Positions 13,659 to 57,974 of a stretch of DNA of 62,234 nt are shown piece after piece; the first letter of the stretch is position 1; every line of letters starts with the position of its first letter. Below the pieces are notes generated by a model. That model saw only the letters and a program-made list of their open reading frames with translations. It made no database searches and had not been told where the DNA came from. The translations under genes and the position numbers were made by a program. Location of the stretch: IMG/VR virus record IMGVR_UViG_3300017692_000001, positions 1 through 62,234 of that record; one strand, 5' to 3'. Source of the DNA: a virus.

Positions 13659-14642
13659 ATGCTACCGACCAAGCTGTTCCGCAACATGATCCCGTTCATC
13701 AACCGATCGGGTAAGACGCTGAACCTCGACGACTTCACCAACTTCGATGGCATGCACGTTGCCGAGCCCGTGCCGTCGTCCTGGGGCAGCAACGGCTTTG
13801 CTTATGTCGAGGCCGAGGCGCACACCGTTGACGTGCAGGGCGCCGCCCAACTGCTGCTCTACCAGTTCAACGACAAGGTCCTGCCCGGCAGCACGCGCGA
13901 CGAGGAAGTCCGCAAGCGCGTCGAAAAGCTGCAGGAGCAGCAGGGCCGCAAGATCGGCAAGAAGGAGTACCGCGAGGTCCGAGACGAAGTGGAGATGACG
14001 CTGCTGACCAAGGCGATGATCCGTCGTTCGTTCGTTCCGGTGCTCATCGTCGACGACTACATCATGGTGTTCACCAGCAGCGCCAAGAAGGCCGACATGG
14101 TCGCCACCGCGCTGATGGTGGCCTATGGCCCGAACGCCGACAAGGCCATGCTGCTGCACAACCTGGTGCACTCGGTGGTGCTGAACCCGGGCAACCTGCT
14201 GCGGCCAGTCGCACAGGCCATCGACGTGGACACGGGCGGCGGGGTGGTGTTCTCGCCGACCAGTTCGGTGGTGCTGAAGGGCGCCGAGAAGCAGGTCATC
14301 CGCATCAAGGACAAGAGCGTCAACAGCCACGACGTGCAGGAACTGCTCAAGCAGGACTACTCGGTCGAGAGTGTCGGCATGGATGTCACCGGCCCGGTCG
14401 ATGCGTCGTTCGTGGTCACGGACAAGCTGATTTTCAAGGGCATCAAGATCGAAGGTGTGAAGCCCGACAAGGACGAAGACGCCAAGTTCAACAACATCTG
14501 GCTGGTCGCGCAGGCGATGGAAACGCTGCTCGACAACGTGATCGAATCGCTCGACGGTCTCGGCGAGGTCACGTTGACTGCTGCGCCTGATGCACCACCG
14601 CGGCCGGACGAAACGCCGGTTGAAGACGACGACGAGATCTGA
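13659..14642 (+). CDS. rdgC: RdgC-like recombination-associated protein (327 aa)
   Basis: ATG at 13659 follows CCAGGACTCACC. Similarity to bacterial RdgC is clear in the N-terminal half: KVLPGSTRDEEVRKRVEKLQ followed by EQQGRKIGKKEYREVRDEV and LLTKAMIRRS, then IMVFTSSAKKAD. RdgC forms a ring dimer around dsDNA and limits RecA access. In a phage it could protect replicating DNA or steer recombination away from host RecA. The length is close to bacterial RdgC (about 300 residues) with an added acidic tail ending VEDDDEI, the tag shared by 13 other proteins here. Confidence 0.8.
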   Translation: MLPTKLFRNMIPFINRSGKTLNLDDFTNFDGMHVAEPVPSSWGSNGFAYVEAEAHTVDVQGAAQLLLYQFNDKVLPGSTRDEEVRKRVEKLQEQQGRKIGKKEYREVRDEVEMTLLTKAMIRRSFVPVLIVDDYIMVFTSSAKKADMVATALMVAYGPNADKAMLLHNLVHSVVLNPGNLLRPVAQAIDVDTGGGVVFSPTSSVVLKGAEKQVIRIKDKSVNSHDVQELLKQDYSVESVGMDVTGPVDASFVVTDKLIFKGIKIEGVKPDKDEDAKFNNIWLVAQAMETLLDNVIESLDGLGEVTLTAAPDAPPRPDETPVEDDDEI

Positions 14643-14645
14643 AGC

Positions 14646-14867
14646 ATGGCCACCGACACCGAAGACGTCGACCTGTACGTGAAGATGTTCCGTGGCTACA
14701 AGCCCGGTGAAAGCTGCTTCATTGAAGGCGGCAAGCGTGCGGACTACGAGTACATCCGCAAGCACTTCACCGCGGCCGGCCTGGGCGTCGAGTTCCGTGA
14801 GGTCGCGTGTGACGTGAAGTACAAGAAGCCCGGCCTGCGGATCTACCGGCGAGAGATCACGGCATGA
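14646..14867 (+). CDS. Small hypothetical protein (73 aa)
   Basis: MATDTEDVDLYVKMFRGYKP then an alpha/beta stretch (DYEYIRKHFTAAGLGVEFRE) and a basic end. Ends EITA, so it lacks the DEI tail although its neighbours on both sides carry it. Coupled to the next gene (ATGA at 14864). Function unknown. Confidence 0.6.
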   Translation: MATDTEDVDLYVKMFRGYKPGESCFIEGGKRADYEYIRKHFTAAGLGVEFREVACDVKYKKPGLRIYRREITA

Positions 14868-15067
14868 CCACCGACGAGATGCTGGAGCGGATCGAAACGC
14901 TCACGGCATGGACAACGCCCGACGGTAGGCGGCTGTGGGTGGCCACCGTTGGCGTCGGCCGCGGCTGGCAGTACCTGGAGTCCAAGGGTCACAAGACGCC
15001 CCAACTGGCGATGGCACACGCGATCGCCGAAGCAGCCGAAGCAGCCGCAGAAGACGAGGAAATATGA
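14864..15067 (+). CDS. Small protein with acidic DEEI C-terminus (67 aa)
   Basis: MTTDEMLERIETLTAWTTPD, a beta segment (RRLWVATVGVGRGWQYLESK) that may be a small DUF-like fold, then an alanine-rich helix ending AAAEDEEI. The C-terminal tetrapeptide matches the tag found on RdgC and others. Its stop overlaps the NADAR gene start. Confidence 0.65.
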   Translation: MTTDEMLERIETLTAWTTPDGRRLWVATVGVGRGWQYLESKGHKTPQLAMAHAIAEAAEAAAEDEEI

Positions 15068-15501
15068 GCACGCCCGCCATCACATCGTTCTCAGGCAGGT
15101 ATCGATTTTTGAGTAACTTCTGGCCAGCGCCGATTCAATTCTCGGGTCTATGGTTCAAAAGCGTCGAGCATGCCTACGTTGCCGCCAAGACGAATTCACA
15201 GGAGGTCCGCAAGACTGTCGCAGTGCTCTCATCACCTGGTCGGGCAAAACGCTATGGCCGTGCCATCGAATTGCGACCGGATTGGGATGAGGTCAAGCTG
15301 AAGTACATGCAGGGCTTCGTGCTGCTGAAGTTCCATCCTCCGTTGCTGCGCGACCTGCTGCTTTGCACGGGCGACGCCGAACTGATCGAAGGCAATACCT
15401 GGGGTGACACCTATTGGGGTGTCTGTGACGGTGTTGGCGAGAACCATCTTGGCAAGATCCTGATGGGCGTCAGAACAATGCTGAACGACGAGGAAATATG
15501 A
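15064..15501 (+). CDS. NADAR-domain (YbiA-like) N-glycosidase (145 aa)
   Basis: A full single-domain NADAR protein: FLSNFWPAPIQFSGLWFKSV, then EHAYVAAKT (Glu35, His36, Lys42), SPGRAKRYGR, LRPDWDEVKLKYM, KFHPPLLRDLLLCTGD and EGNTWGDTYWGV with the usual GENHLGKILM close. The family cleaves N-glycosidic bonds of ADP-ribose derivatives and riboflavin intermediates; some members remove ADP-ribose from guanine in DNA. In a phage this suggests counter-defence against DarT-type or NAD-based systems (inferred). Ends LNDEEI. Confidence 0.85.
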   Translation: MSTPAITSFSGRYRFLSNFWPAPIQFSGLWFKSVEHAYVAAKTNSQEVRKTVAVLSSPGRAKRYGRAIELRPDWDEVKLKYMQGFVLLKFHPPLLRDLLLCTGDAELIEGNTWGDTYWGVCDGVGENHLGKILMGVRTMLNDEEI

Positions 15502-15734
15502 GCCATAAGAAGCTCACGGTCGAAGAGATGCTGCCGCTGATGTGCTCGATCATGCGCTACGACTACGGCGGCTATCTATGGCGTGCTAGGACCATCGCCT
15601 GCAGTGAATACGGGCGTGGCCAGACGCCGGAAGAGGCCATGCGCGAGGCCCTGCTGCTCGAAGACGACGGCATGTTCGGCGACCTGATCGACGCGCCTGA
15701 CGTGACATCTGACACAGATGACGACGAAATTTAA
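15498..15734 (+). CDS. Small protein with DDDEI C-terminus (78 aa)
   Basis: Helical start (MSHKKLTVEEMLPLMCSIMR), a YGGYLWRARTIACSEYGRG beta segment resembling that of the 14864-15067 product, and QTPEEAMREALLLEDDG. The linker to the tail (APDVTSDTDDDEI) is disordered in appearance. The resemblance to 14864-15067 suggests these are diverged duplicates. Confidence 0.6.
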   Translation: MSHKKLTVEEMLPLMCSIMRYDYGGYLWRARTIACSEYGRGQTPEEAMREALLLEDDGMFGDLIDAPDVTSDTDDDEI

Positions 15735-15742
15735 ATAAACCG

Positions 15743-15771
15743 TGGACAGTGGTTGATGGGTACACCATAAT
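15743..15771 (+). promoter_or_regulatory. Internal rightward promoter candidate
   Basis: TGGACA (15743-15748), 17 bp, CATAAT (15766-15771), in one of the few gaps of the block (15735-15797) and 27 bp upstream of an ATG with AGAGGATC. Each hexamer has five of six consensus bases. It lacks the second half-site of the other early promoters. Confidence 0.55.
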
Positions 15772-15797
15772 CACGCTACCAACAAGAGGATCATTCA

Positions 15798-16070
15798 ATG
15801 CAAACCGATTCATCTATTCGACGCATGCGCTTGATGGCCGGTATGGGGGCACCAGCAATAGCGACCGCGCTGATGGCCGAGGCCAGCCAGCGTGTCTACG
15901 AGCAGGCTGCGGCTGAGAACCCCGTGCCCCTGCATGACCCGTCGGTCGACAAGGGCCAAACCGAAGCGCTGCAGCGGCTGCACTGCCCGAGCCGCCATCC
16001 CGACGAGTCGCTGGCCGAGTACCGCCTGCGCCAGAAGCAAAGCCGCATGTACGGGAGCATGGTGCGATGA
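15798..16070 (+). CDS. Hypothetical protein (90 aa)
   Basis: First gene behind the internal promoter. Helical (RRMRLMAGMGAPAIATALMA), a proline linker, then HCPSRHPDESLAEYRLRQKQ. No recognised family; no DEI tail. Its stop overlaps the next ATG. Confidence 0.6.
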   Translation: MQTDSSIRRMRLMAGMGAPAIATALMAEASQRVYEQAAAENPVPLHDPSVDKGQTEALQRLHCPSRHPDESLAEYRLRQKQSRMYGSMVR

Positions 16071-16411
16071 ACAGCCGTCTTCGTCGCAACCTCACCAAGC
16101 TCGAAGCCATCGTGCTGCACTCCGCACCGCGCGAATGGACGATCTTGGATCGTCAGATTACCCGGCCCTACTACGTGCAGATCGGCAACCTGATCGACCG
16201 CGGCTTCATCGAACGCAAGCCGCTCGGCGACAGCATCGTGTGGCGCCGTAAGCCGAAGACCGTCGCAGAAGCTGCGGCCGACCTGGTAATGGCGCTGCCG
16301 TGGACAGACGATGAGATGTCGCGCCTGCCCTACCGCGAGCAGCTTGCTGAACTGCGTCGTCAACTTGAAGTGCTTGCCGAACAACAGGCAAAGGAGACCG
16401 TCGATGCCTGA
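16067..16411 (+). CDS. Hypothetical protein, possibly winged-helix (114 aa)
   Basis: The N-terminal half (RNLTKLEAIVLHSAPREWTI then QITRPYYVQIGNLIDRGFIE and RKPLGDSIVWRRK) has the helix-helix-wing order of a small winged-helix domain, so DNA binding is possible. The C-terminal half is a coiled-coil-like helix (YREQLAELRRQLEVLAEQQA). No specific family recognised. Confidence 0.5.
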   Translation: MNSRLRRNLTKLEAIVLHSAPREWTILDRQITRPYYVQIGNLIDRGFIERKPLGDSIVWRRKPKTVAEAAADLVMALPWTDDEMSRLPYREQLAELRRQLEVLAEQQAKETVDA

Positions 16412-16679
16412 TGTCACCGACTACAGCAAGCTGGTCGACGAAGACCTGTATGTCCTGATGGGCTCGGTCACGTACATGCGCAGCCCCACGACCAAGAAGC
16501 GCGGCTGGTTCGCCATGCGCTTGAACGGCCAGACCACGGGCCAGGGCGATACCGCCCGCGCTGCCATGCTCGACGCCCTGAAGCAGCCGGTCCCCGATCG
16601 GAAGTGGCCAGTCGAACACAAGCAGGTCTTCGTGCCGAAGGTCTTTCCCACGGACGTCGACGACGACGACGAGATATGA
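16404..16679 (+). CDS. Small protein with DDDDEI C-terminus (91 aa)
   Basis: Body VDEDLYVLMGSVTYMRSPTT, KKRGWFAMRLNGQTTGQGDT, ARAAMLDALKQP: the same strand-strand-helix layout as the 14864 and 15498 products. It ends FPTDVDDDDEI. Part of a likely paralogous set of small tagged proteins. Function unknown. Confidence 0.6.
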   Translation: MPDVTDYSKLVDEDLYVLMGSVTYMRSPTTKKRGWFAMRLNGQTTGQGDTARAAMLDALKQPVPDRKWPVEHKQVFVPKVFPTDVDDDDEI

Positions 16680-17284
16680 AGGACTTCTCCATCCGCTGCG
16701 CCACCTTTGGCGCCGGCCCGACCGCCCCGATCCTGGCCATCGCCGCGATCGCGTTCGACCCTGTGTCGGGCAAGCTCGGCAACAAGTTCTACTGCACCAT
16801 CGAACTGCAGTCGGTGTTGAAGCCGGGCGTGTTCCTGATCGACCCCGAGAGCGTGTCGACCTGGATGGGTCGCACGACCGAAGCCCGGTCCATCTTTCAC
16901 CTGAAGCCGAACGTCCCGCGCCATACGATCGCTACGGCACTCGACGAACTGAACAAGTGGATCTGGAGCCAGGGCAGCGAGCCGCCACACGCATGGGGCG
17001 ACCTGGCCGTGCTGGAGTACGCCTACCGTGCCGGCGCGATCGGCCTGCAGCCTGCCTGGCACAACACCGGCCGCCGCGAGAAGGACAGCCTGATCGACGC
17101 ATGTCGCGTGCTATTCGGCATGGGCGAGTTGCCCGACTCCAAGCCTGGTGTGCTCGACGACCTGCGTGATGCTGCTGAACTGCAGGCCACACAGGTGCAG
17201 ATGATGTACGCCTTCATGGCCAAGGCGAAAGCCGCCAAGCCTGCGAAGCACAAGCCTGTCGTCACCGAAGACGACGAAATTTAA
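16676..17284 (+). CDS. DEDD exonuclease-like protein lacking the first catalytic motif (202 aa)
   Basis: Resembles the Rv2179c/DexA-like 3'-5' exoribonuclease family: FGAGPTAPILAIAAIAFDPV, then a segment matching the family's sTxxWW stretch (PESVSTWMGRTTEARSIF), a WG motif (HAWGDLAVLEYAYRAGAIGL), and a final REKDSLIDACRVLF. In active members the N-terminus is DxET-G; here it is RCAT-FG, so the DxE pair appears lost. It may bind nucleic acid without cutting. Carries the tail TEDDEI. Confidence 0.65.
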   Translation: MKDFSIRCATFGAGPTAPILAIAAIAFDPVSGKLGNKFYCTIELQSVLKPGVFLIDPESVSTWMGRTTEARSIFHLKPNVPRHTIATALDELNKWIWSQGSEPPHAWGDLAVLEYAYRAGAIGLQPAWHNTGRREKDSLIDACRVLFGMGELPDSKPGVLDDLRDAAELQATQVQMMYAFMAKAKAAKPAKHKPVVTEDDEI

Positions 17285-17310
17285 CCACCCGCAACCTGAG
17301 AGAAGAAACC

Positions 17311-17592
17311 ATGTCTGAAGCCATCCTTACCAGCAAACTCATCGGCGATCGCATCGGCATCACGATGACCAACGAGTTCATCAACGAGGTGCTGAAGGTC
17401 AAGCCCGACGCACAGCAGAAGAAGTCGATGCTCTACAGCGAAGACACCTTCGTGAAGATCTGCGATGCCTTCGAGGGCCACGTCGCCCGCTGCCGCGCCG
17501 GCAAGTTCGCGCCGGTCCGCGAGGTCGCCACGCGCAACCGCAAGACCGCCGCCCCGGCGCCCGCACCGGTCGATGACGACGACGAGATCTAA
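17311..17592 (+). CDS. Small protein with DDDDEI C-terminus (93 aa)
   Basis: AGAGAAGAAACC precedes the ATG. The body (LIGDRIGITMTNEFINEVLK, SEDTFVKICDAFEGHVARCR) is helical. An alanine-proline linker (TAAPAPAPV) separates it from DDDDEI, the layout expected for a flexible exposed tag. Function unknown. Confidence 0.65.
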   Translation: MSEAILTSKLIGDRIGITMTNEFINEVLKVKPDAQQKKSMLYSEDTFVKICDAFEGHVARCRAGKFAPVREVATRNRKTAAPAPAPVDDDDEI

Positions 17593-17595
17593 GCC

Positions 17596-17973
17596 ATGAA
17601 GGTCATCATCGCGGGCTCCCGTCATCTCGGCACACCGATGCAGATCGTCGCTGCTGTCGAGGCGTCGAAGTTCAAGATCACGCAAGTGGTCTGTGGCATG
17701 GCCCGCGGTGTTGACCTGGCCGGCCGCAATTGGGCCTACCAGCGCGAGATCAGGATTGTTCCTTTTCCCGCGCATTGGCGTCTGCCGAACGGCGTGCTCG
17801 ACAAGGGCGCCGGCTTTCGACGCAATCAGCAGATGGCTGAGTACGCAGACGCCCTGATCGCCGTGTGGGATGGCCATTCCCGCGGCACCAAACACATGAT
17901 CGAGTGCATGGAACGGATGAACAAGCCGGTGCACATCGAACTTATCGGGTACGAAGACCCTGAAGAAATTTGA
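17596..17973 (+). CDS. SLOG/DUF2493 nucleotide-binding protein (125 aa)
   Basis: Typical Rossmann-like SLOG features: MKVIIAGSRHLG at the N-terminus, VVCGMARGVDLAGRNWA, FPAHW, the RRNQQMAEYADALIAVWDGH segment and SRGTKHMIECM. The family relates to YspA and the DprA/TIR-associated SLOG group and is thought to bind nucleotides or NAD-derived ligands. Standing two kilobases from a NADAR gene it may belong to an ADP-ribose or NAD counter-defence set (inferred). Ends YEDPEEI. Confidence 0.75.
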   Translation: MKVIIAGSRHLGTPMQIVAAVEASKFKITQVVCGMARGVDLAGRNWAYQREIRIVPFPAHWRLPNGVLDKGAGFRRNQQMAEYADALIAVWDGHSRGTKHMIECMERMNKPVHIELIGYEDPEEI

Positions 17974-17982
17974 AGGAACACT

Positions 17983-18288
17983 ATGGCCAACCGCAACACA
18001 CCGACGACCCTTGCCAACATGGCTGCACAGACGCCTGCGCCCGCACCTGCTGGCCAAGGGAAGCACAGCCACTACTTCAAGGACGTGCGTCACCTGAAAA
18101 CGATCGACGTGTATCGCGTGCTCGAACTGTTCGATGTCACTGACCCGACGCTGCAGCACGTCGTCAAGAAGGCGCTCGCTGCCGGCCAGCGCAAGCACAA
18201 GACATTCGAGCACGACATCCAGGACATCTTCGACACCACCAAGCGCAAGCTGGAGATGCTGGCCGAAGACGCTTTGGCGAACGACTGA
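17983..18288 (+). CDS. Conserved phage protein, helical (101 aa)
   Basis: After a disordered Ala/Pro-rich start, residues 28-95 read HYFKDVRHLKTIDVYRVLEL, FDVTDPTLQHVVKKALAAGQ and RKHKTFEHDIQDIFDTTKRK. This block is familiar from small uncharacterised proteins of many podo- and siphoviruses near nucleotide or replication genes. No assigned reaction. It has no DEI tail. Confidence 0.65.
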   Translation: MANRNTPTTLANMAAQTPAPAPAGQGKHSHYFKDVRHLKTIDVYRVLELFDVTDPTLQHVVKKALAAGQRKHKTFEHDIQDIFDTTKRKLEMLAEDALAND

Positions 18289-18314
18289 CCAACACCACCA
18301 ACCGAAAGAACTAG

Positions 18315-18869
18315 ATGGCCACCCTCTTCATTCTCCCTGCCTTCGTTGACCCCGAGATCGGCGAATGGCAACACCCATCCACCCGGCCGACCGAGACCGG
18401 CGTGTTCCGTGTGCGTCCCAAAGCATCGGACCCGGATTGGGGTCCCGGCTGGTCCCACTTCGCTGTCGACGGCATCGTCGAGATCGAGGGCAAACAGGTC
18501 GTCGGCGTGTGGGGCAAGGCGTACATGGAGCACGGCGAAATCAAGACCGCCGATGAAGAGTGGTCGGTCAATCAGGACCGCTGGTGGGCCGGCCTGGCCA
18601 AGCCGCCGATCCTTCCGGTGCCGGTGCAAGGCGTGGTCATCGTGAAGAAGGATCTCGACAATTTCCTGCATCCTGGTGTGACGATCGACAACGTCGTTCG
18701 CTACGGTGATGTCTACCACGGCGAGATCACCAACGACCACGGCACGTTCAGCGTGAAAATCGACGTGGCCGACTGCGAAGATCCAGCCGTGCAGCCCAGC
18801 GCTGCAGTCGAGAGCGTACCCGAGGATGCTGCTGTCGAGCAGGCGCCTGTCGAAGACGAAGAGATCTGA
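18315..18869 (+). CDS. Hypothetical protein with DEEI C-terminus (184 aa)
   Basis: The N-terminal 95 residues are tryptophan-rich and beta-like (DPEIGEWQHPSTRPTETGVF, DWGPGWSHFAVDGIVEIEGK, DRWWAGLAKPPILPVPV). A second segment (KKDLDNFLHPGVTIDNVVRY) follows, then a long acidic, alanine-rich linker ending VEDEEI. Another member of the tagged set; family not recognised. Confidence 0.6.
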   Translation: MATLFILPAFVDPEIGEWQHPSTRPTETGVFRVRPKASDPDWGPGWSHFAVDGIVEIEGKQVVGVWGKAYMEHGEIKTADEEWSVNQDRWWAGLAKPPILPVPVQGVVIVKKDLDNFLHPGVTIDNVVRYGDVYHGEITNDHGTFSVKIDVADCEDPAVQPSAAVESVPEDAAVEQAPVEDEEI

Positions 18870-42964: not shown

Positions 42965-43317
42965 GGCGTGCGGCTTCCGGTGGCCAGCCAGACACGCTCC
43001 AGCGGGCCGGTGGGCTCTTCTGCGGTGTCGAGGGTGTAGACCCAACCAGGCATGTGCTTGAACGAGATCTTGCCGCCACGCTCGAATTCGAGATCCGGTG
43101 TGTCGGAAGGGATCGTGACGATGCGGTACAGGCCCTGAGTCATCTCGGCGTAGCCGTCGCTTTCGGCATCGCCAGACAGCGCCATCTTGGTGTGCAGCCG
43201 CGCGGTGATGCCGGCAGGCGCACTCATGGTTTTGGACTGATAAAACGCCGACACGCCGAGCGTCGTTTGGACGACTCGGCGTGCGTTCGCTTTCACGTCA
43301 GCGAAATCGAAGGCCAT
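42961..43317 (-). CDS. Head-tail joining protein (118 aa)
   Basis: MAFDFADVKANARRVVQTTL, then a beta-rich body (SAPAGITARLHTKMALSGDA, LYRIVTIPSDTPDLEFERGG). Placed between head and tail modules like lambda gpFII-type connectors. The ATG shares bases with the upstream gene's stop. No strong family signature. Confidence 0.55.
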   Translation of the reverse strand: MAFDFADVKANARRVVQTTLGVSAFYQSKTMSAPAGITARLHTKMALSGDAESDGYAEMTQGLYRIVTIPSDTPDLEFERGGKISFKHMPGWVYTLDTAEEPTGPLERVWLATGSRTP

Positions 43318-43541
43318 CAGATCTCGTCGTTGGCCTTCTTCGTGACGGCCTTGACGACCGCCTCTTCCTTCTGCAGTTCACGCAGCATCGGCTTGCCTTC
43401 GGCCTTCTCGGCGCGACGGATGTCGGTGACTTCCTTCTCGTAGAACTCGCAGGGCACGTTGATCGGCAGGTTCACGAACTCGCCTTCACGAACGACGCTG
43501 ATGGTGACGAGAGGAACCAGGGTAACGAGCTTTTCAGCCAT
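43317..43541 (-). CDS. Small head-region protein with NDEI C-terminus (74 aa)
   Basis: MAEKLVTLVPLVTISVVREG, PINVPCEFYEKEVTDIRRAE, then a charged helix ending KKANDEI. Position next to the capsid gene recalls small lambda FI-type packaging accessory proteins. It is one of the few head-module genes with the acidic DEI tag. Confidence 0.6.
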   Translation of the reverse strand: MAEKLVTLVPLVTISVVREGEFVNLPINVPCEFYEKEVTDIRRAEKAEGKPMLRELQKEEAVVKAVTKKANDEI

Positions 43542-46471: not shown

Positions 46472-48118
46472 CTAAATCTCATCGTCGTCTTCGTCATCAG
46501 CGGCACCGGCTGACGCGGTCGACTTGGCCGTCGGCTTCTGCGTGCTGAAGTTCAAGGTGAGACCCAACTTCTTGGCGTATGCCTCTTCGCGGGCCTTCTG
46601 CCGCATCACCTTGCGCCAGTCTTCGCCGAGCCGGCCGGTCTCCATTTCCATCGTCGACAGACCCGCGCCCATGCGCAGCATCGCGGCTTGCGTCTCCTTC
46701 ATTTCATCCACCTGCACACGGGATGCACCGATCCAGGATGCGGCAAAGATCGCCTCACGGACCAGGGCATCAGCGTAGAAGCGCTTCAGGAACGCAGCAG
46801 GGGTCACACCCACCGGCAGCGGGACGTTGCCGCGGTTCAGTTCCTCTTCGAGCCACAGCCGATACATGCAGTTGGCGGTGTTGTCGCCGACCAGCTTTTT
46901 GCGCGACTGCATGAACTTCCAGGTCTCACCCATCGAAGCACGCGCCGACGAGTAGTTGGTGTTGGTGTAGTCGCGGCTGAACTGCTCATAGCTCAAGCCG
47001 AGGGTGGCTGCGATATGACGCAACAGCGACTGCTCGAAAGTGGTGCCGACGCCGCCCGGTGTTCCCATCGGCTTCATGTTCAGCTTGGTGCCCGGGAACA
47101 GATGCGGGATCTTGGCACCGTCGACCTTCACCGAACCACCCGCCTCGACATAGCCCATCAGGCCATCCATGAAGCCTTGCACGACTTCGGCATAGGTCTG
47201 TTGGCCAGGACCAGCACCCATCATCTCGCGCACCAGGTCAGGCGACATCTCCGACTCGATCGCCGCGGCATAACTGGCGTTGACCACAGCGTTCTGCAGC
47301 GTCACGTCCTGGAACGTGCTGGTCATCTTCATCTGCTTGAGCGCGGCAACCATGTCGGCCACACCGCGCGACTGGTCGGGCTGCATCTGCTCGATCGTGT
47401 GCAGCACCATGCGCCGGCCCCACGGCTTGTAGGCATTGACGCGTACCCACTCGTAGCCGTCGACGTCCCACAGGATGTCACCGGGGTGGCCCTTGCGAAT
47501 CCAGTACGCGATCGGAGCACCGTAGTTGTCCTTCTCGATGCCACGGCGCAAGGTCTTGGTGTCGGGCATGCCGTCCGGGTTGGACAGCCGCGACGGCGAG
47601 ACCATCTGCATGGCCGAGTAGAACGGGCGATCGGGCCGCTTCTTCCACTCGCATGTGGCCAGCACTTCACCTGTCATCACGAAACCACTGACGGCCAGTC
47701 GCACCAGGCCCGTAAGCGTGTTCATCTCGCTGGCATCGCACCAGTTTTCGCTCGAATCCGACAGCAGGTTGAAGCGGGTCTCAGCCCATGCCGAGAACTC
47801 TTCGGCCCACTCTTCGGTGAAGCCCAAGATCTCATTCACAGGCTGCGCATTGAGTCGGTACTGCGCGCCGACGATGCTATCGCGATGGATGGCCAATGCG
47901 CCCATCGCATAGCCATCGTTCTGGATCATGTCGCGGCTACGAGCGTCAGCCGTCTCCTTCACGCCAGAACTGAGTTGACGATCAGGCGAGATGATGGGCG
48001 GCGACCACAGCGCGGTCTCGCGAGTGGTGCGCTCGGCACCTTCAAGACCACCGCCACCTTGGCCAACAGCGCCAGTGACAGGGCGCGCAGCAACGTCGAT
48101 TACAACAGGTGGTTTCAT
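46472..48118 (-). CDS. Portal protein, lambda gpB family (548 aa)
   Basis: Strong match to the gpB class: RDMIQNDGYAMGALAIHRDS, IVGAQYRLNAQP, TGEVLATCEWKKRPDRPFYS, and the signature ATLGLSYEQFSRDYTNTNYS followed by SARASMGETWKFMQSRKKL. Forms the dodecameric DNA gate. Unlike lambda gpB it ends in AGAADDEDDDEI, the acidic tag shared with TerS and other DNA-handling proteins; in the portal this tail would lie exposed before or during packaging. Confidence 0.9.
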   Translation of the reverse strand: MKPPVVIDVAARPVTGAVGQGGGGLEGAERTTRETALWSPPIISPDRQLSSGVKETADARSRDMIQNDGYAMGALAIHRDSIVGAQYRLNAQPVNEILGFTEEWAEEFSAWAETRFNLLSDSSENWCDASEMNTLTGLVRLAVSGFVMTGEVLATCEWKKRPDRPFYSAMQMVSPSRLSNPDGMPDTKTLRRGIEKDNYGAPIAYWIRKGHPGDILWDVDGYEWVRVNAYKPWGRRMVLHTIEQMQPDQSRGVADMVAALKQMKMTSTFQDVTLQNAVVNASYAAAIESEMSPDLVREMMGAGPGQQTYAEVVQGFMDGLMGYVEAGGSVKVDGAKIPHLFPGTKLNMKPMGTPGGVGTTFEQSLLRHIAATLGLSYEQFSRDYTNTNYSSARASMGETWKFMQSRKKLVGDNTANCMYRLWLEEELNRGNVPLPVGVTPAAFLKRFYADALVREAIFAASWIGASRVQVDEMKETQAAMLRMGAGLSTMEMETGRLGEDWRKVMRQKAREEAYAKKLGLTLNFSTQKPTAKSTASAGAADDEDDDEI

Positions 48119-48389: not shown

Positions 48390-50468
48390 TCAGGCCAGCG
48401 CCTTGGCGTACTTGGAAAAATCAGTGGGCGATTTTATGGTATGCGCCAGCTTCGGAATCTCATCGGGTTGGCGTATGAGACTGTTCTTGTCCCACGGCGC
48501 GGCCCACTGCGGCGGGTTTTCCCAATCCCACGTTTCGATTCGGATGTAGGTCGACAGACACAAGCCGATGCACATATAGCCCAAGTCGACGGCTTCGTTT
48601 CGTGTTCGACCGCTGGTGTGTTCCCACCCCTTGCTGGTCCGCTGCTCGGCGCACATTTCCTCGAAGAACGACGTCGGCAACCAGTTCGGCATCAGGTACA
48701 TGCCCTGGCCCGGCGTGAAGCAATCGAGGCGTGCATCGAGTTCGTCCTTCAGCAGATTCGAGTTGAACTGCAGCACAGGCACGTCGCCGCGCGCTGCCGC
48801 GTTGCGATCCTTCCGGCTGCTGTCCGGGTGGGTAATCTGCGTGCGCGGATGGCCGGGCTTGCCGCTGCCCTTGGTCAACACGAACCGCGCATGCCGGCCT
48901 TCGTCTTTCAGCTTGCGCCAGAAGCGATAAGCCATGCTGGTCACGCCGTCCTTACCACCCGAGTCGCAACCGGTCAGCTTGATCGGCATCATCCTGCCCG
49001 ACCCGTCAGCGAGTTCGTATTCCCGCTCCATCACATTGCCGATGAGTTCATCCCAATCGTCGAGTTCGGCGTGCGGCTTGACCCACTCCAGCCCGCCCAC
49101 TTCATCAGACCGCTGCGAGTATTTGACCTCGAAGCGGTCGATCAAGACCATGTCGAACGGTTTGCCCGGCATGATCCCGAAGATCTGCACGATCCACATA
49201 TTCTTCTGCACGTCACACAGCGCAACCAGGAAGCGCACGCCCTCGGGGACCTTGCGCACCTGGTCTTCCTGCAGCTTGATCGCGTTGGCCTGCAGCGTCT
49301 CGGGCAAACGGCTCGTCAGCATCGACTTCGGCAGGTAAGGCTCGCCCAGGTCGTTGTTGTAGAACTTGGTCAACGGCCCTTCGTTCTGCGTCTTCTCATA
49401 CTCATCGTTGGCATCGAGAAACGCATTGACCAGTTTGGACCACGTCGTGAAGGCCGCGGCGATGCCGTTCAACCAGTAGGAAGCTATCGACGTGCGGATC
49501 TTCGGGCCGAACACGACACCGTCTTTGTCGACGGCCTGGCCATCCTGCACCCATCGACCGGCCATCTGCATCGCCTGCCGCTGGTCAGGGTGGATCAGTT
49601 CGCCGCAACCGGCCAGCGGACACCTCAAGCGCGCGGTGGCGCCGACGTCCATGTTCGTCATGCCCTCCTGCTTCGTGTAAGTGATCTGCGACCAGTTGCC
49701 CTCGAAGTAACCACCGCAGTGAGGGCATGGCCAGTACCAGCGGCACTTGTTCCCGCGGTTGTAGAGGGCCAGGATGCCGGCGCACGGCGGGGCCTCATGA
49801 AGACTGGCGCGAATCCACTTCGGGTTGTCGATCGTGCGCGACGGCGACGACTCACAGACGGTCATGGCGTTCGACAAAAACGTGGTGGTGCGCTTGCTGG
49901 CCAGGTCGTAGGGATCACCGTCACCGTCGATGTCGTCAGGCATCCGATCTCGATCGGTGAGCAGCACGCGGCCGATGGGCTTGCCGGCAAGTTCAGTGAC
50001 GGAGGGATAGCTGAACGTGAGCAGCACACCGTTGCGGTATTGCTTGTCGAACTTGTTGTCGCTGTCTGCACCCGGCAGCATCATGGCGCCGATCTCTTTC
50101 GAGTCGCGGTGCATCCGGTCGACCCGTCGAATCGAGAAGTCGCGCGCAGCCGTGGCCGTAGGACACACCAGCATGATGTCCATCGGGTCGACCTTCACCG
50201 TGTAGGCGATGAAGTTCAGAATCAGCGACTCGGTCTTGGACGACTGCGCTGGCCCTACAAAACAAAGGCCCACGTAGTTGCGGGCCAGGGTCATATCCAT
50301 CGGCTCGACCATGTAGGGAGCCATCGAATTCTTGTACTTGCCGACATAGGCGCCGGGGTTGTTCAGGTAGCGGTACTTCTCCGCGGCCTGCGAGACGGTG
50401 TATTCCTCCTTCGGCTCCAGCAGCGCCAGAACCGACAGGACCATATCCTCGACACGTTCAAATTTCAT
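48390..50468 (-). CDS. Terminase large subunit, GpA family (692 aa)
   Basis: ATG at 50468 (MKFERVEDMVL) is the favoured start; it overlaps the TerS stop. ATPase: CFVGPAQSSKTESLILN (Walker A), then VLLTDRDRMPDDIDGDGDPY in the Walker B place. Zinc motif PCPHCGGYFEGNW with RCPLAGCGEL. Nuclease half includes FKVKYSQR-like and TGCDSGGKDGVTSMAYRFWR (acidic site). GpA enzymes of cos phages nick 12 bases apart, which fits the terminal repeats here. The Walker B Glu appears replaced (DRD in place of DEx). Confidence 0.9.
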   Translation of the reverse strand: MKFERVEDMVLSVLALLEPKEEYTVSQAAEKYRYLNNPGAYVGKYKNSMAPYMVEPMDMTLARNYVGLCFVGPAQSSKTESLILNFIAYTVKVDPMDIMLVCPTATAARDFSIRRVDRMHRDSKEIGAMMLPGADSDNKFDKQYRNGVLLTFSYPSVTELAGKPIGRVLLTDRDRMPDDIDGDGDPYDLASKRTTTFLSNAMTVCESSPSRTIDNPKWIRASLHEAPPCAGILALYNRGNKCRWYWPCPHCGGYFEGNWSQITYTKQEGMTNMDVGATARLRCPLAGCGELIHPDQRQAMQMAGRWVQDGQAVDKDGVVFGPKIRTSIASYWLNGIAAAFTTWSKLVNAFLDANDEYEKTQNEGPLTKFYNNDLGEPYLPKSMLTSRLPETLQANAIKLQEDQVRKVPEGVRFLVALCDVQKNMWIVQIFGIMPGKPFDMVLIDRFEVKYSQRSDEVGGLEWVKPHAELDDWDELIGNVMEREYELADGSGRMMPIKLTGCDSGGKDGVTSMAYRFWRKLKDEGRHARFVLTKGSGKPGHPRTQITHPDSSRKDRNAAARGDVPVLQFNSNLLKDELDARLDCFTPGQGMYLMPNWLPTSFFEEMCAEQRTSKGWEHTSGRTRNEAVDLGYMCIGLCLSTYIRIETWDWENPPQWAAPWDKNSLIRQPDEIPKLAHTIKSPTDFSKYAKALA

Positions 50469-51102
50469 CGTCGTCATCCACTTCAATCACATCGGGCAAC
50501 GCAGGTTCGGCCAGTGCATCGAACGAGCGCTCTTGGTACATCTTCAGGATGTAATTCTCCTTGCTGTCTTCAACGTCGTCAGCGCGCTCCTTGAATTCCT
50601 CCTTGATCGCGTGCTGCAGTTCTTCCAGCAACGCGGCATCGGACTCACGCAGCAGCGTGCGCAGGGCATCACTTAGTTCCATGTTCCGCTCAATGCCGTC
50701 GACCCGTTGGCCGATGCGCTGCTTCAACAACTTGAACAGGCGCGACACGACCTCGACGACCTTGCCCGTGGGCCACAGATCGCCCATCTCGCGCATGTAG
50801 GCGCCGCGCGAGCGCAGACCATTCCAGAACTCCTTGCTGAGTTCCTTCGGCAGCGCGTTGGTGTTCATCCGCGGCAGGATCGCTTCGACCTGTGCCGCGC
50901 TTGGCTTGTAGAGCCGATGCACGACGTCACGCACCAGCCAGCACTTCGCGCCATTGCGCACGCTGTGATGCGGCACCCCGTATATCCGGGCCGTGATGGT
51001 CCGGGAGTCCATGCCGAAGAGCACTTCCATCTGCGAGAGGTTGAAGCCGCCGTGCAGCAGGTCTTCGACCGACGTGACCCCTTCGCCACTTTTCTTAGTC
51101 AT
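50458..51102 (-). CDS. Terminase small subunit, Nu1/DUF1441-like (214 aa)
   Basis: N-terminal winged helix (LLHGGFNLSQMEVLFGMDSR, TITARIYGVPHHSVRNGAKC, WLVRDVVHRLY) of the Nu1/DUF1441 type for cos recognition. A long helical middle (KVVEVVSRLFKLLKQRIGQR) for oligomerisation follows, then a C-terminal part that should contact TerL. Ends EVDDDDEI. Sites it may recognise are the repeats flanking the genome ends. Confidence 0.8.
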   Translation of the reverse strand: MTKKSGEGVTSVEDLLHGGFNLSQMEVLFGMDSRTITARIYGVPHHSVRNGAKCWLVRDVVHRLYKPSAAQVEAILPRMNTNALPKELSKEFWNGLRSRGAYMREMGDLWPTGKVVEVVSRLFKLLKQRIGQRVDGIERNMELSDALRTLLRESDAALLEELQHAIKEEFKERADDVEDSKENYILKMYQERSFDALAEPALPDVIEVDDDDEI

Positions 51103-52751: not shown

Positions 52752-53023
52752 TGTTTTGCCTCTTCAAAGCTATCGGTCCAATAGACCTCGACGTTCTGCG
52801 CACGAAGCTCTCCGTGACGCTTGAACTGCTGGCGCGTTGGCACCTTTCCTACCTTCTTGAACTCGATGCAGACCACACGGGTGTGCGCGCCCTGCGCCCT
52901 GAAAAAGAAGCGATCGGGCCAACCGTTTTTATTGGCCGACATGATCTTGATCTCGACCCATCCTCGTGAGATCGCATACGCCACGCTCGGACCTTCGATG
53001 TCCTTCTCCAACTCGTTCTTCAT
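52739..53023 (-). CDS. VRR-NUC domain nuclease (94 aa)
   Basis: A stand-alone VRR-NUC: ELEKDIEGPSVAYAISRGWV (leading Glu), NKNGWPDRFFFRAQ (PD motif), VCIEFKKVGKVPTRQQFKRH (ExK and Gln), and VYWTDSFEEAKQWL. PD-(D/E)XK superfamily, found as Holliday-junction or structure-specific nucleases in phages next to SNF2 helicases. The overlap with the helicase start (52739-52751) supports joint action. Confidence 0.85.
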   Translation of the reverse strand: MKNELEKDIEGPSVAYAISRGWVEIKIMSANKNGWPDRFFFRAQGAHTRVVCIEFKKVGKVPTRQQFKRHGELRAQNVEVYWTDSFEEAKQWLY

Positions 53024-55104
53024 ACTTCAAGATCCCTGCACTTCTTGCAATGACGATGACCGTCCGGCACCGCATCGAATTCGACCCACTTGTCCCGGAT
53101 CGTCTCGCGCGTTGCCCCGCAGAGCGCAATGCCGCTCGGCAGTTCGACGGTGTGAATGGTTTTCTTCTCTTCCATGTGGGCCAGAACAGTGCCCGTGCGG
53201 CCGGCCAGCGCCGGATCGACACCCTTCATCCCGACGTCGTTCAGGATCGCGTTGGCCTCCCGGAGATACCACTGCATGTCGACGTTCTCGGGGAACTCGT
53301 CCGGCAGTTCCATGCATGGCCAGCAGGCGTCCGACTTCGGCACCTTGTTGCCGTTGTCACGCTTGAACATGGCCTCGCTGCTGTTGTTGCAGTGGTAGAA
53401 GCGGATGGTCTTGCCGACGTACTCGCCGTTGAACATCGCGCCGCCTTCACCGACCTTCGTCGACGTCAGGAATTTGCGGATGTCCTTGCACTCGTAGATC
53501 GTCCGCTCCAGGGGGATGTTCTTCTGCAGGTAGAGCACGACGGCGTCGTAGGCGATCTCGGCGTCGGGGTTCTTCTTCAGCCCATAGGCGCCCGGTATGC
53601 CACGCCCGTGGACCGCGGCCTTGCCCTTGCGCTTGATCTTCACCTTGCCGGTCTTCTCGTCTGGCACGGTGAACGCGATGTAGGTGTTGACGTCACGGGA
53701 GTGGACCGAACTGTATTCGGTGTACTCCATCTCAAGGCTCGTCTCGATCTCCCAATCCATGACCAGGCCGCGGTGCCACCACTTATGCTTGCGCGGCAGC
53801 TTGGTGACGACGCCGTCGGTGTTCGCGCTGATCACCTGGAAGCCGGCAAGGGTCATCTGCTCGATGAACATCAGCAACGATAGCTGACCCCCGAGTGTGG
53901 TCTGGATCATGATCTCGGGCGAGTAGACAACCGACCAGCGGCTGCTCGTCTTGCCGAAGAGACCGTTACACACAATCTTGCGCGACTCGGCAATCTCGAC
54001 CTGGCCCGCTCGCTTGGCGGCGGTTCGTTCGCTCACCTGGCGGCGGAACGCCGGCTGAAAGATCCCGCGCATGTTGTCCGGCTCCCGGCCGGTGGCGATC
54101 ATGTTGTTCGGGTAATAGCCGGTCACGTCGGTGTCGACGATGATCGTGTCTTCATCGGCGTAGTGGCTGATCGACGACTCCATCGAGTGCAGCCCACCGA
54201 TACCCATCATGTATCGGTTACCGCCAATCGTAACGATCCGACCTTCGAGTTCCTTCGGCGGGACGATGTAGCCGTCGCCACGAACGATGAACGACGCACG
54301 CATGACCTCATCGAACATCTGCTGCAGTTCTGGCGTCTGGAAGTTGATGTGCTTCGGTGGCACGAACTTGATCGCACCGGTCTTGACCTCATCGTTCGCA
54401 TACAGCTTGCGACCGGTCTCCTTCTCATAGACGCACTTCATCACCTGTTCGCCGACCTGCGCATCGCTCTTGCTGCGCATGTCGACACCGTATTCGTCGG
54501 ACATCTGCATGCGCAAGGTAATCTGCGGCTGCAACTCATCCCACAGGTCGCAGGTCAACTCCAGGTCGTTGTAGCAGTAGGCGGCCACCAGCGGGCGCAG
54601 ATCCTCGGTAACGAAGGTGTCATGGCCGACGGGCATGTCCTGGATCTTCTTCGACCCCATCATGGCGCCGTACATCTTCAGACTGGTGAACAGCGACTCC
54701 TTGCCACTGTCACGCGCGGCCGACGGTGCGACCTGGATCAAGTCGATGTGGTCGAGACCACGGGGCAGGTACAGCCCGTGGCGGTTCATGAACTCCCACG
54801 GCTTCAGGCCGACCAGTGGCTTCTTGACGATGATGGTGTCGTTCGCTGCCTTTAGTTCCTCGGTGCTGGCGCCGGTCAGGGCCAGGCAGATCATCGGGAT
54901 GTCGTAGTGGTTGCCGTTGAAGCTGACGATTCGATTGCGCGCAATGACCTTGCGGATGCCGTCAGTGTCGAGGGGATGGCCTTCGTATAGCTCGAACTTC
55001 ACACGGCGGCTGCGATCGGCCGTGGACATGAACGCGATCGACCAGTAGCCAGGCAGGCACTCGGTGTCGGTGGTGACGGTCGGTCGCTTGTCGATGTACT
55101 TCAT
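53020..55104 (-). CDS. DNA polymerase, family B with 3'-5' exonuclease (694 aa)
   Basis: Exonuclease: TDTE (Asp13, Glu15), SFNGNHYDIP (Asn63, Asp68) and YCYNDLELTCDL near residue 175. Polymerase motif A is IVDTDVTGYYPNNMIAT, motif B SRKIVCNGLFGKTSSRW and motif C VISANTDGVVTKLP; these fit family B (DxxSLYP, KxxxNxxYG, DTD) and not family A. Motif C is TDG where DTDS is usual. No separate terminal protein gene is evident, and the primase-helicase at 58990-61599 can supply primers. Size is compact for family B. Confidence 0.85.
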   Translation of the reverse strand: MKYIDKRPTVTTDTECLPGYWSIAFMSTADRSRRVKFELYEGHPLDTDGIRKVIARNRIVSFNGNHYDIPMICLALTGASTEELKAANDTIIVKKPLVGLKPWEFMNRHGLYLPRGLDHIDLIQVAPSAARDSGKESLFTSLKMYGAMMGSKKIQDMPVGHDTFVTEDLRPLVAAYCYNDLELTCDLWDELQPQITLRMQMSDEYGVDMRSKSDAQVGEQVMKCVYEKETGRKLYANDEVKTGAIKFVPPKHINFQTPELQQMFDEVMRASFIVRGDGYIVPPKELEGRIVTIGGNRYMMGIGGLHSMESSISHYADEDTIIVDTDVTGYYPNNMIATGREPDNMRGIFQPAFRRQVSERTAAKRAGQVEIAESRKIVCNGLFGKTSSRWSVVYSPEIMIQTTLGGQLSLLMFIEQMTLAGFQVISANTDGVVTKLPRKHKWWHRGLVMDWEIETSLEMEYTEYSSVHSRDVNTYIAFTVPDEKTGKVKIKRKGKAAVHGRGIPGAYGLKKNPDAEIAYDAVVLYLQKNIPLERTIYECKDIRKFLTSTKVGEGGAMFNGEYVGKTIRFYHCNNSSEAMFKRDNGNKVPKSDACWPCMELPDEFPENVDMQWYLREANAILNDVGMKGVDPALAGRTGTVLAHMEEKKTIHTVELPSGIALCGATRETIRDKWVEFDAVPDGHRHCKKCRDLEV

Positions 55105-55535: not shown

Positions 55536-56204
55536 TCAGATCTCGTCGCCGTCGTTGTTGGAATTGCCGCCCAGGCCGTCGTCGCCATCGGCCAAGTCGT
55601 CGTAGATGCTGCTGTCGTCGATCTTGCCGGCGCCGAACGGCTCGCCGTCACGCATGAAGAAGACCGATCCCAGGCTTGCTGCAACTCGCTTCGGATATGC
55701 CTTGTCCTTGCCCTTGACGACACCGCCGAAGAACCACGGGCGAATGACCATCGTCAGATAGCAGCCACTGTAGAAGGTGCGATCGATCTCCGTCGCATCG
55801 GTGATCTCCTTACCCTGGCGATTACGAGCAGTCGGACGCTGCTTGGTCTCAGACGCGCTGATGAGCCAGTGGCCGTGCATGGTTTCGTCTTCACGTTCAT
55901 CACCGTCCTGGATGAACATATTGGCACGCAGCACCTTAACGGCCTTCTCCCCCTTGCCCTGCGCAGCAACGATCTTGTCGATCGTGGCGATGACCAGGTC
56001 GTAGGCTTCGACACGAGCCTTCGGCAGCATGCCAATACCGCGCCACTTCGGATTGGGAGTACCGTCGTCGTTCTTATCGTCGGCCTGCTTGCCGAGGAAA
56101 AGATAGGAGCCGCGCACATCGTCGAGACGGAGCAGGGGGTTGCCTTTGTCGTCTTCGTAGAGTCGTGCGCCAGGAACAGTTTTAATGAGTTTCGGTTGAG
56201 CCAT
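55536..56204 (-). CDS. ssDNA-binding protein, DUF2815/Enc34 type (222 aa)
   Basis: Carries DUF2815 hallmarks: GKQADDKNDDGTPNPKWRGI, MFIQDGDEREDETMHGHWLI, DRTFYSGCYLTMVIRPWFFG and SLGSVFFMRDGEPFG. Enc34-type proteins have an OB fold and an acidic C-terminal tail like bacterial SSB. Here the tail runs DDSSIYDDLADGDDG to NNDGDEI and ends in the tag common to RdgC, TerS and primase-helicase. It coats ssDNA at the replication fork and may recruit partners through the tail. Confidence 0.85.
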   Translation of the reverse strand: MAQPKLIKTVPGARLYEDDKGNPLLRLDDVRGSYLFLGKQADDKNDDGTPNPKWRGIGMLPKARVEAYDLVIATIDKIVAAQGKGEKAVKVLRANMFIQDGDEREDETMHGHWLISASETKQRPTARNRQGKEITDATEIDRTFYSGCYLTMVIRPWFFGGVVKGKDKAYPKRVAASLGSVFFMRDGEPFGAGKIDDSSIYDDLADGDDGLGGNSNNDGDEI

Positions 56205-56230: not shown

Positions 56231-57526
56231 TTAATCGATTACTTCGGTTTCAGTGAGATCCGCATAGATCTCGTCATCGTCGATGTTCGTGATTGCAGGA
56301 CGTTTGTCATACAAGGGCACCAACGTCGGTTTGCCTGGTGGTTTGATGACCAGCGGCATCATCACATTCTTCAGCTTGTCGCCCTTGACCCCGACCTTAC
56401 GAAGCTCGTCTTCCGCCTTTGACGGTGAGATCACCGTAAGCGGGAACGCTACCTCGGGGTCGACCCCGTTGGCGATCAACACATTGCCTGCCTCGAAGTC
56501 ATTCTTGAACGATCTGAACGACCGGCCTCGAACGAACTTCATATTCGTCGTCTGACCGGCGCGGGTGCGCTTGGCCAGTTCGATCTCCACTGCCTTCCAC
56601 CAGCCGATAGCCTGGTTCTTGAAGGGCATCAACCGGACCAGTTGATCCGTGGTCAAGGTCATCAGGTTGGCGAACTTGAAGGCGTCTCCGTCTTCGATCC
56701 GATCCTTCAGCGCCTCGACATCGTCGACACCCATGTCGACCAGGTCATCGAACATTCCTGCCGTCTGTGTCGCTTGCAGAGCCACTGCCGGCCCGCACGT
56801 CGCTTTCACCTTGCAGAACTGGCACGCCTTTTCCGACGGCGTGCGTGGTGCATCCAACTGCCAGGCCAGATGCGAGCGAACCCGCACATGCTCGGCGAAC
56901 GCCAGAAGCTCATAACGATTGATGACGTGCCGATCCCAATGGTGCACACGGGGCTGCGCGATGCGCATCTCGATGTACTGGAAGTGGTATTCATCGTCGT
57001 ATCGCAGGAAGAATCCAAGCGCGTAGAGCATCAACTGCGGGTTGTTTCTCGCGGGCACAACCACGCCCTTACCTAGCTTCAGATCGGTAATCGTCAGATA
57101 CCCGGGACGCGCAGCAGCGTGATCGCATGTGCCACCTTGGAAGGGCAGCGGTGTGAACTTGGAAAAGTCCACATGCGTCTCGACGAAATGCACACCTTCG
57201 AGCGGCTGACACCAGTCGACATACTGCTGAACCTCATCCAACATCTGATCGTCGATCTCGATGTCATAGCGGCCCACGTTCTCGACTGTACCGACCAGGT
57301 AGTCCGGCCGACGTTCGGTCTTCAGCCAGGTTTCCCCGACACCATGACCGACCGTGCCGTAGGCCGCATCGAACCCGGCTTCGTCCTTGGCCAGCAGGTT
57401 CGGGATCAGACCACCGGCGCAGGTCAACCACAACCAACTGCCGGACGGTGAGAAGACGTGGTGCGCCGCATGGGCTACCGCGTACTTCGCCGCCAGCGCG
57501 GTGAGGGTGATCCTGTGCTCGGTCAT
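56231..57526 (-). CDS. DUF2800 family PD-(D/E)XK nuclease (431 aa)
   Basis: N-terminal SPSGSWLWLTCAGGL and FDAAYGTVGHGVGETWLKTE (His motif), YLTITDLKLGKG (D-x-K catalytic core), NPQLMLYALGFFLRYDDEYH, and cysteines EKACQFCKVKATCGPA that could bind a 4Fe-4S cluster as in AddB/Cas4-like enzymes. The phage family is found beside DUF2815 ssDNA-binding proteins and probably processes recombination or replication ends. Near the C-terminus lies NIDDDEI, followed by 11 extra residues (YADLTETEVID). Confidence 0.8.
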   Translation of the reverse strand: MTEHRITLTALAAKYAVAHAAHHVFSPSGSWLWLTCAGGLIPNLLAKDEAGFDAAYGTVGHGVGETWLKTERRPDYLVGTVENVGRYDIEIDDQMLDEVQQYVDWCQPLEGVHFVETHVDFSKFTPLPFQGGTCDHAAARPGYLTITDLKLGKGVVVPARNNPQLMLYALGFFLRYDDEYHFQYIEMRIAQPRVHHWDRHVINRYELLAFAEHVRVRSHLAWQLDAPRTPSEKACQFCKVKATCGPAVALQATQTAGMFDDLVDMGVDDVEALKDRIEDGDAFKFANLMTLTTDQLVRLMPFKNQAIGWWKAVEIELAKRTRAGQTTNMKFVRGRSFRSFKNDFEAGNVLIANGVDPEVAFPLTVISPSKAEDELRKVGVKGDKLKNVMMPLVIKPPGKPTLVPLYDKRPAITNIDDDEIYADLTETEVID

Positions 57527-57932: not shown

Positions 57933-57974
57933 GATGATCCTTGAGATGAAAGGGAACTGCGCAGAGATGAAGAA

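What the first reader, a model, noticed from the sequence alone, without database searches (positions are those of the whole stretch)
13659..18869. A shared acidic C-terminal tag ([D/E]-E-I) on nine of fourteen early proteins
RdgC, the NADAR protein, the SLOG protein, a DEDD exonuclease-like protein and five small unknown proteins in this stretch end in DDDEI, DEEI, DDEI or PEEI. The proteins are otherwise unrelated. Codons vary freely (GAC/GAT, GAA/GAG, ATC/ATA/ATT) and stops are TGA or TAA, so selection acts on the peptide. Often a disordered Ala/Pro linker precedes it (for example TAAPAPAPV before DDDDEI at 17592). I know of no described tag of this kind. It could direct proteins to a phage replication compartment, dock them on one hub, mimic the host SSB acidic tip, or control proteolysis.
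Basis: partly seen in the sequence, partly recalled or inferred. Interest (0 to 1): 0.93.

Follow-up and report, generated by a model that had tools for sequence, protein, structure and literature searches.

The report
Phage-specific shared C-terminal docking tag
At least fifteen otherwise unrelated proteins of this virus end in the same short acidic peptide closing in isoleucine, and relatives of the virus put their own version (ending in valine, leucine or another residue) on the matching proteins, which suggests each phage labels its DNA-handling proteins with a private docking code.

Summary
The tail is real and larger than reported. In the 62-kb window (a Casjensviridae-type, chi-like siphophage) the nine proteins named end in [D/E/P]-[D/E]-E-I. 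Six more do so outside the stretch: SSB, primase, small terminase, portal, a lambda-FI-position head protein, and a small protein upstream of the exonuclease (AEDI). Expected number ending in EI: 0.2. Observed: 13 among 76 called genes (P about 1e-19).

Relatives carry the tail on the orthologous proteins, but with a last residue proper to each phage: Chi 9/9 V, UF_RH7 10/10 L, BUCT551 11/11 I. Within-phage agreement across nine families is 80%, against 29% in permutations. The residue switched together in several proteins on several branches. It follows the phage, not the host. NADAR homologues in unrelated phages lack the tail (0/61). Codons vary freely.

Best reading: a C-terminal linear motif, related in kind to the T7 gp2.5/gp4 and E. 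coli SSB tails, read by one phage-encoded protein that gathers replication, recombination and packaging proteins on phage DNA. The SSB core is my best guess; the DNA polymerase is unlikely, since it is replaced by an unrelated one while the tags persist. I found no published description.

The parts
13659..14642 (+). RdgC, tail VEDDDEI
   Evidence: PF04381 E 1.5e-24; phrog_724; tagged in 16 of 17 orthologues
14864..15067 (+). 67-aa unknown protein, tail AEDEEI
   Evidence: no family
15064..15501 (+). NADAR protein, tail NDEEI added after the domain end (GVRTML)
   Evidence: PF08719 E 1.2e-21; 0 of 61 NADAR homologues in unrelated phages have the tail
15498..15734 (+). 78-aa unknown protein, tail DTDDDEI
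16404..16679 (+). 91-aa unknown protein, tail VDDDDEI; overlaps next start as ATGA, with rare Ile codon ATA
16676..17284 (+). Rv2179c-like 3'-5' exonuclease, tail TEDDEI
   Evidence: PF16473 E 1e-14; phage relatives Axp2 end EEDDEL and FoX4 DEDDEL
17311..17592 (+). 93-aa unknown protein, Ala/Pro linker then DDDDEI
17596..17973 (+). YAcAr (SLOG) protein, tail EDPEEI
   Evidence: PF10686 E 1.1e-8
18315..18869 (+). 184-aa unknown protein, tail VEDEEI
43317..43541 (-). 74-aa head protein at the lambda FI position, tail KANDEI
   Evidence: homologous to Chi gp18 (DUF7443); all 20 homologues end in a hydrophobic residue, 16 with the acidic tail
46472..48118 (-). portal protein, tail DEDDDEI
   Evidence: PF05136 E 2.7e-83; tail on 4 of 24 portals only
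50458..51102 (-). terminase small subunit, tail VDDDDEI
   Evidence: phrog_141 E 2.6e-27; tagged in 17 of 24 relatives
55536..56204 (-). Enc34/T7-type SSB, tail NDGDEI, disordered in the model
   Evidence: PF10991; PDB 5odj E 2.8e-81; model pLDDT 90, last three residues below 50; Foldseek 5odj and T7 gp2.5 1je5
56231..57526 (-). RecB-like exonuclease with a buried tag NIDDDEI followed by 11 residues
   Evidence: phrog_69; sequence
57546..57980 (-). small protein of the Chi gp4 family, tail AAEDI
58990..61599 (+). Prim-Pol/DUF5906 primase, tail EDDPDEI
   Evidence: PF09250, PF19263; phrog_1156
53020..55104 (-). DNA polymerase, untagged; not detectably homologous to the family A polymerase of Chi
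   Evidence: phrog_1252; Chi polymerase is PF00476/phrog_17

Best explanation
The tail is a C-terminal short linear docking motif: a flexible linker, two to five acidic residues, and a final hydrophobic residue with its free carboxylate. Shown: it sits on DNA-handling proteins of the phage (SSB, primase, exonucleases, RdgC, small terminase, FI-position protein) and on accessory early proteins; it is absent from capsid, tail, protease, large terminase and DNA polymerase; within one phage the carriers share the same last residue, and the residue has switched together in many proteins several times. Inferred: one reader protein, encoded by the phage, has a basic groove and a hydrophobic pocket that fit the last residue, and it collects carriers on replicating or packaging phage DNA. 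When the pocket drifts, every carrier follows.
For: Enrichment and shuffles. Phage-specific last residue on orthologues. Concordant pairs 279 of 350 (80%) against a permuted mean of 29% and maximum of 44% in 5000. Accessory tagged genes match the SSB residue of their own phage in 32 of 46, against a mean of 13 in 5000 permutations, whose maximum was also 32. Parsimony counts 10 changes of the majority residue on a core-gene tree, with clean nested cases: BUCT551+L161 all I inside an all-L clade; window I beside L148; Chi clade all V. Same pattern in about 40 IMG/VR loci. The residue follows phage, not host: Aeromonas I (BUCT551) or L (PhAER6); Xanthomonas V (XAP3) or L (FoX4); Providencia V or M/I; Pseudomonas UF_RH7 and Pectobacterium MA12 both L. 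All six Leu codons occur. No tail on 61 NADAR homologues elsewhere. For SSB as reader: it is one of only five non-structural families present in all 24 relatives (SSB, exonuclease, helicase, TerS, TerL), while the polymerase is swapped. The Enc34 SSB crystal shows the C-terminus lying in a neighbour's groove, and its authors report similar contacts in both DUF2815 structures and T7 gp2.5 (PMC5686142). One SSB core column separates I-phages from L-phages better than in 99% of relabelings, with no such column in four other families.
Against: No reader was identified. The SSB covariation is weak: five families were tested, and the window itself has a gap at that column. In the Enc34 crystal the last eleven residues are disordered, so the terminal residue is not seen bound. 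The predicted SSB shows no confident tail position. Some phages mix residues (pPM01, JC01, Kokobel1, Axp2), and some carriers lack the tail. Nazgul and L187/L189 tails are hardly acidic, so the acid part is not strict. The permutation tests do not model phylogeny. Genes were called by a simple script.
Confidence: 0.72

Rival explanations
1. The tails dock on the phage DNA polymerase, as in T7, where acidic tails bind basic patches of gp5.
For: T7 gp2.5 ends DEDGDF and gp4 ends SNDTDF; gp4 tails bind gp5 basic patches (PMC5997990, PMC12593628). Polymerase itself is never tagged.
Against: The polymerase is family A in Chi and a phrog_1252 type in the window, AH2 and Axp2, yet tags persist in both groups. 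Packaging proteins carry the tag too.
Confidence: 0.1
2. The tails dock on another conserved phage protein: the SNF2-like helicase, the RecB-like exonuclease or the large terminase.
For: All three are present in all 24 relatives; large terminase is never tagged, while TerS and some portals, its expected partners, are.
Against: Helicase and exonuclease are themselves often tagged; no covariation signal above relabeling for any of them.
Confidence: 0.22
3. The tails recruit or mimic a host protein interaction (host SSB tip partners) or steer host proteases.
For: Acidic tails and C-terminal residues are used by host SSB partners and by proteases such as ClpXP and Tsp (own knowledge).
Against: Phages of one host genus use different last residues, and phages of one genus on different hosts use the same one. 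Host SSB ends in IPF, not EI/EV/EL (own knowledge).
Confidence: 0.07
4. The acid stretch only weakens non-specific DNA binding or raises solubility; the last residue is incidental.
For: Loss of the Enc34 SSB tail raised dsDNA binding (PMC5686142); most carriers of known function act on DNA.
Against: Does not explain concerted switches of the last residue or shared endings with little acid (Nazgul DPAAGL and GGL).
Confidence: 0.06
5. A nucleic-acid signal such as translational coupling, or a copied DNA cassette, makes the ends alike.
For: Several carrier genes overlap the next start (ATGA).
Against: Codons and stops vary, all six Leu codons occur, third positions agree only 40%; genes not overlapping a downstream gene are tagged too.
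Confidence: 0.01

Closest known systems
T7 gp2.5 and gp4 acidic C-terminal tails ending in Phe, binding gp5 DNA polymerase
   Same: Flexible acidic tail with terminal hydrophobic residue on the SSB and on a second replication protein; SSB of the same fold
E. coli SSB C-terminal tip (DDDIPF)
   Same: Acidic C-terminal peptide with terminal hydrophobic residue recruiting genome-maintenance proteins (own knowledge)
   Different: There only SSB has the tip and partners have pockets; here many proteins share the tip; the sequence differs and there is no PF
Enc34 ORF6, DUF2815 SSB (PDB 5odj/5odk/5odl)
   Same: Same protein family as the window SSB (E 2.8e-81); acidic tail, whose cloned end encodes WDEDEV (reverse primer in PMC5686142)
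   Different: The paper describes the tail of SSB alone; a shared tail on other phage proteins is not mentioned in the passages read
Beta-clamp binding motifs
   Same: One short peptide motif on many unrelated DNA proteins, read by one hub (own knowledge)
   Different: QLxLF-type motif for a sliding clamp; no clamp gene noted here

Membership tests
T7-type SSB (DUF2815/Enc34) for the window SSB | Sequence and fold of the family | tested here: met
   PF10991, phrog_112; 5odj E 2.8e-81; Foldseek 5odj and 1je5
T7-type SSB (DUF2815/Enc34) for the window SSB | Unstructured acidic C-terminal tail | tested here: met
   Block-mean pLDDT 64 or lower from residue 201, below 50 at 220-222
T7 gp2.5/gp4 tail system | Acidic tail with terminal aromatic on SSB and helicase-primase | tested here: not met
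   Tail on SSB and primase is present, but the terminal residue is I here and V, L, M or only sometimes F in relatives
T7 gp2.5/gp4 tail system | Tail binds basic patches of the phage DNA polymerase | not testable with these tools
   Indirect evidence against: polymerase replaced while tags persist
E. coli SSB-Ct motif | Terminal Pro-Phe read by host partners | tested here: not met
   Tails end in EI in the window; no PF ending among the relatives listed
Host proteolysis signal (ssrA-like) | Terminal residues fixed by a host recogniser | tested here: not met
   Residue varies among phages of one host genus
Casjensviridae | Chi-like gene order and orthologues of SSB, exonuclease, helicase, TerS, TerL, portal, protease, capsid | tested here: met
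   Present in all 24 relatives compared; portal 60% identical to AH2

The most novel reading that the evidence does not exclude
Each lineage of these phages runs a private protein-addressing code: a single reader with a pocket for one terminal residue defines which phage proteins and captured foreign proteins join its DNA-processing assembly, newly gained genes acquire the tag, and the code drifts as a unit, so that two phages in one host keep separate assemblies.
Probability: 0.4. Interest if true: 0.93.

Novelty: new variant of a known kind. Interest (0 to 1): 0.87.

Why it matters
SSB tails are classic recruitment peptides, but they are known on one or two proteins. Here a whole genome shares one, and evolution has re-lettered it as a unit several times. 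That gives a natural experiment for motif-reader coevolution, a way to predict which unknown phage proteins act on phage DNA, including captured enzymes such as NADAR and SLOG, and a lead to how such a phage gathers its replication, recombination and packaging machinery. The terminal-residue swap makes the idea directly testable in chi-like phages.

Tried and rejected
Single-sequence scans of IMG/VR with RdgC, primase and the Rv2179c-like exonuclease found no relatives; portal, an SSB alignment and NADAR did. The model does not dock the tail. Covariation between core proteins and the tag residue gave only a weak SSB hint and nothing for exonuclease, helicase, TerS or TerL. Translation coupling or copied DNA was rejected on codon variation. 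The DNA polymerase was first favoured as reader by analogy with T7, then set low because it is replaced by an unrelated polymerase. The window polymerase matched no solved structure by sequence. Two unrelated siphophages (BUCT548, Itty13) had no protein meeting the tail criterion, and T4 and N4 had one DNA pattern match each in the whole genome. Literature searches found no description of a shared tail; the library holds open-access papers only.
Full report
Observation. The stretch 13659-18869 holds 13-14 genes on the + strand. Nine end in [D/E/P][D/E]EI. The window is a 62,234-base virus record of the chi-like family Casjensviridae, judged by orthologues and gene order. Six more proteins outside the stretch share the ending: FI-position head protein NDEI, portal DDDEI, small terminase DDDDEI, SSB DGDEI, the small protein upstream of the exonuclease AEDI, primase DPDEI. 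The exonuclease has DDDEI followed by eleven residues, as if a stop had been lost; whether a stop was really lost is inference.

Chance. Among 76 genes called by a simple codon-usage caller, 13 end in EI where 0.22 are expected from the internal frequency of EI (P 1e-19). Shuffling the last ten residues of every protein never gave more than 3 against 12 observed. The caller missed one true carrier (16404-16679), so the count is conservative. Unrelated phages give background: BUCT548 and Itty13 none; 6 tagged genes in all in 61 IMG/VR loci that hold a NADAR gene.

Relatives. Whole genomes of Casjensviridae were read and called in the same way. Chi has nine tails, all ending V. UF_RH7 has ten, all L. 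BUCT551 has eleven, all I. MA12 has twelve L and one F. XAP3 has eight V and one I. Soft has eight V and one I. PhAER6 has eleven L. FoX4 has nine L and one M. The carriers are the same proteins: SSB, RdgC, small terminase, FI-position protein, the Chi gp4 family, primase, exonuclease. Capsid, decoration, protease, tail proteins, large terminase and DNA polymerase are never tagged. An IMG/VR scan with an SSB alignment returned 58 loci; about 45 look like this family, and nearly all of those show the pattern. Even phages with less acidic ends stay in concert: Nazgul ends SSB, exonuclease, helicase, TerS and primase in GL, with DPAAGL on three proteins; L184 ends SSB, exonuclease, TerS and primase in I; S-ESS1 uses a two-residue ending such as LI.

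Concerted change. Over nine families and 24 phages, 279 of 350 within-phage pairs agree in the last residue, against a mean of 29% and a maximum of 44% in 5000 within-family permutations. On a tree of core genes with tails removed, the majority residue changes about ten times by parsimony. Clean cases: BUCT551 and L161 (all I) nested with PhAER6, L180 and L155 (all L); the window (I) beside L148 (mostly L); L184 (I) in an L group; the Chi clade (V). Accessory tagged genes outside the core families match the residue of their own SSB in 32 of 46 cases, against a mean of 13 in 5000 permutations (maximum 32). The permutations do not model descent; the tree does so only roughly.

Gain of the tag by unrelated proteins. 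The window NADAR protein ends right after its domain with NDEEI, while 0 of 61 NADAR homologues in other phages have it. Homologues of the 14646 protein end at or near GTRVYR in Chi-like phages, but UF_RH7 and MA12 continue with NADEEEDDL or NADKDEEL. The Rv2179c-like exonuclease carries EDDEI in the window, EEDDEL in Axp2 and DEDDEL in FoX4.

Level of selection. Glu, Asp, Ile, Leu and stop codons vary; two window tails use the rare Ile codon ATA in an ATGA overlap and five use ATT, against 3% and 9% genome-wide. Selection therefore acts on the peptide.

Host or phage reader. Aeromonas phages have I (BUCT551) or L (PhAER6); Xanthomonas phages V (XAP3) or L (FoX4); Providencia phages V (PatoteraRojo) or I/M (Kokobel1). 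UF_RH7 on Pseudomonas and MA12 on Pectobacterium belong to one genus and both use L. A phage-encoded reader is the simplest account (inference).

Which reader. Non-structural families present in all 24 relatives are SSB, exonuclease, helicase, TerS and TerL. The polymerase is family A in Chi (PF00476) and a phrog_1252 protein without PF00476 match in the window, so it is an unlikely reader. SSB is of the Enc34/T7 type and its tail is disordered. In the Enc34 crystal the C-terminus lies in a neighbour's groove, and the authors report similar contacts in two DUF2815 proteins and in T7 gp2.5 (PMC5686142). A search for core columns that track the residue gave one SSB column at the 1% level and nothing in four other families. 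I regard SSB as reader as a guess, about one in three.

Known context. In T7, gp4 tails bind basic patches on the polymerase (PMC5997990, PMC12593628), and gp2.5 and gp4 both end in an acidic tail with DF. So the principle is known on two proteins. DUF2815 SSBs of several more distant IMG/VR phages have their own ending (DDFLN) that no neighbouring protein shares, which fits SSB as the original owner of the tail (inference). I found no paper describing a shared tail in chi-like phages, in an open-access library.

Verdict. It is a new variant of a known kind, with an unusual feature, the concerted, phage-specific terminal residue, that makes it directly testable.

Noticed in passing
L009:9227-10756 (Chi helicase) and exonucleases of JC01, pPM01, IMG48920: Untagged helicases and exonucleases often end in a second motif such as VWDDEE, AWDDE or VWDD, also present as DAWDD before the SSB tail; possibly a second docking motif.
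   Followed up: no
56231-56281: The exonuclease continues eleven residues past a perfect DDDEI; a relative (L144) also continues past FDDL. Looks like stop loss or an internal tag.
   Followed up: partly
53020-55104: The DNA polymerase (phrog_1252) is not detectably homologous to the family A polymerase at the same place in Chi; no solved-structure match.
   Followed up: partly
14646-14867: Small protein whose homologues are untagged in Chi-like phages but tagged in UF_RH7, MA12 and IMG46692: a visible gain of the tag.
   Followed up: partly
15064-15501 and 17596-17973: NADAR and SLOG (YAcAr) proteins, families often linked to ADP-ribose or nucleotide signals, sit in the early operon and are tagged; possible counter-defence or DNA-modification roles.
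   Followed up: no
L130-L132 (BPP-1): Bordetella phage BPP-1, outside Casjensviridae, ends SSB in AADLV, exonuclease in VEDLV and another protein in GGDLV, so the sharing may reach further.
   Followed up: partly
L011/L012 (AH2), L094-L096 (Nazgul): Burkholderia phages use a longer shared ending, DPA[ADEG][GD]L, on several proteins.
   Followed up: partly
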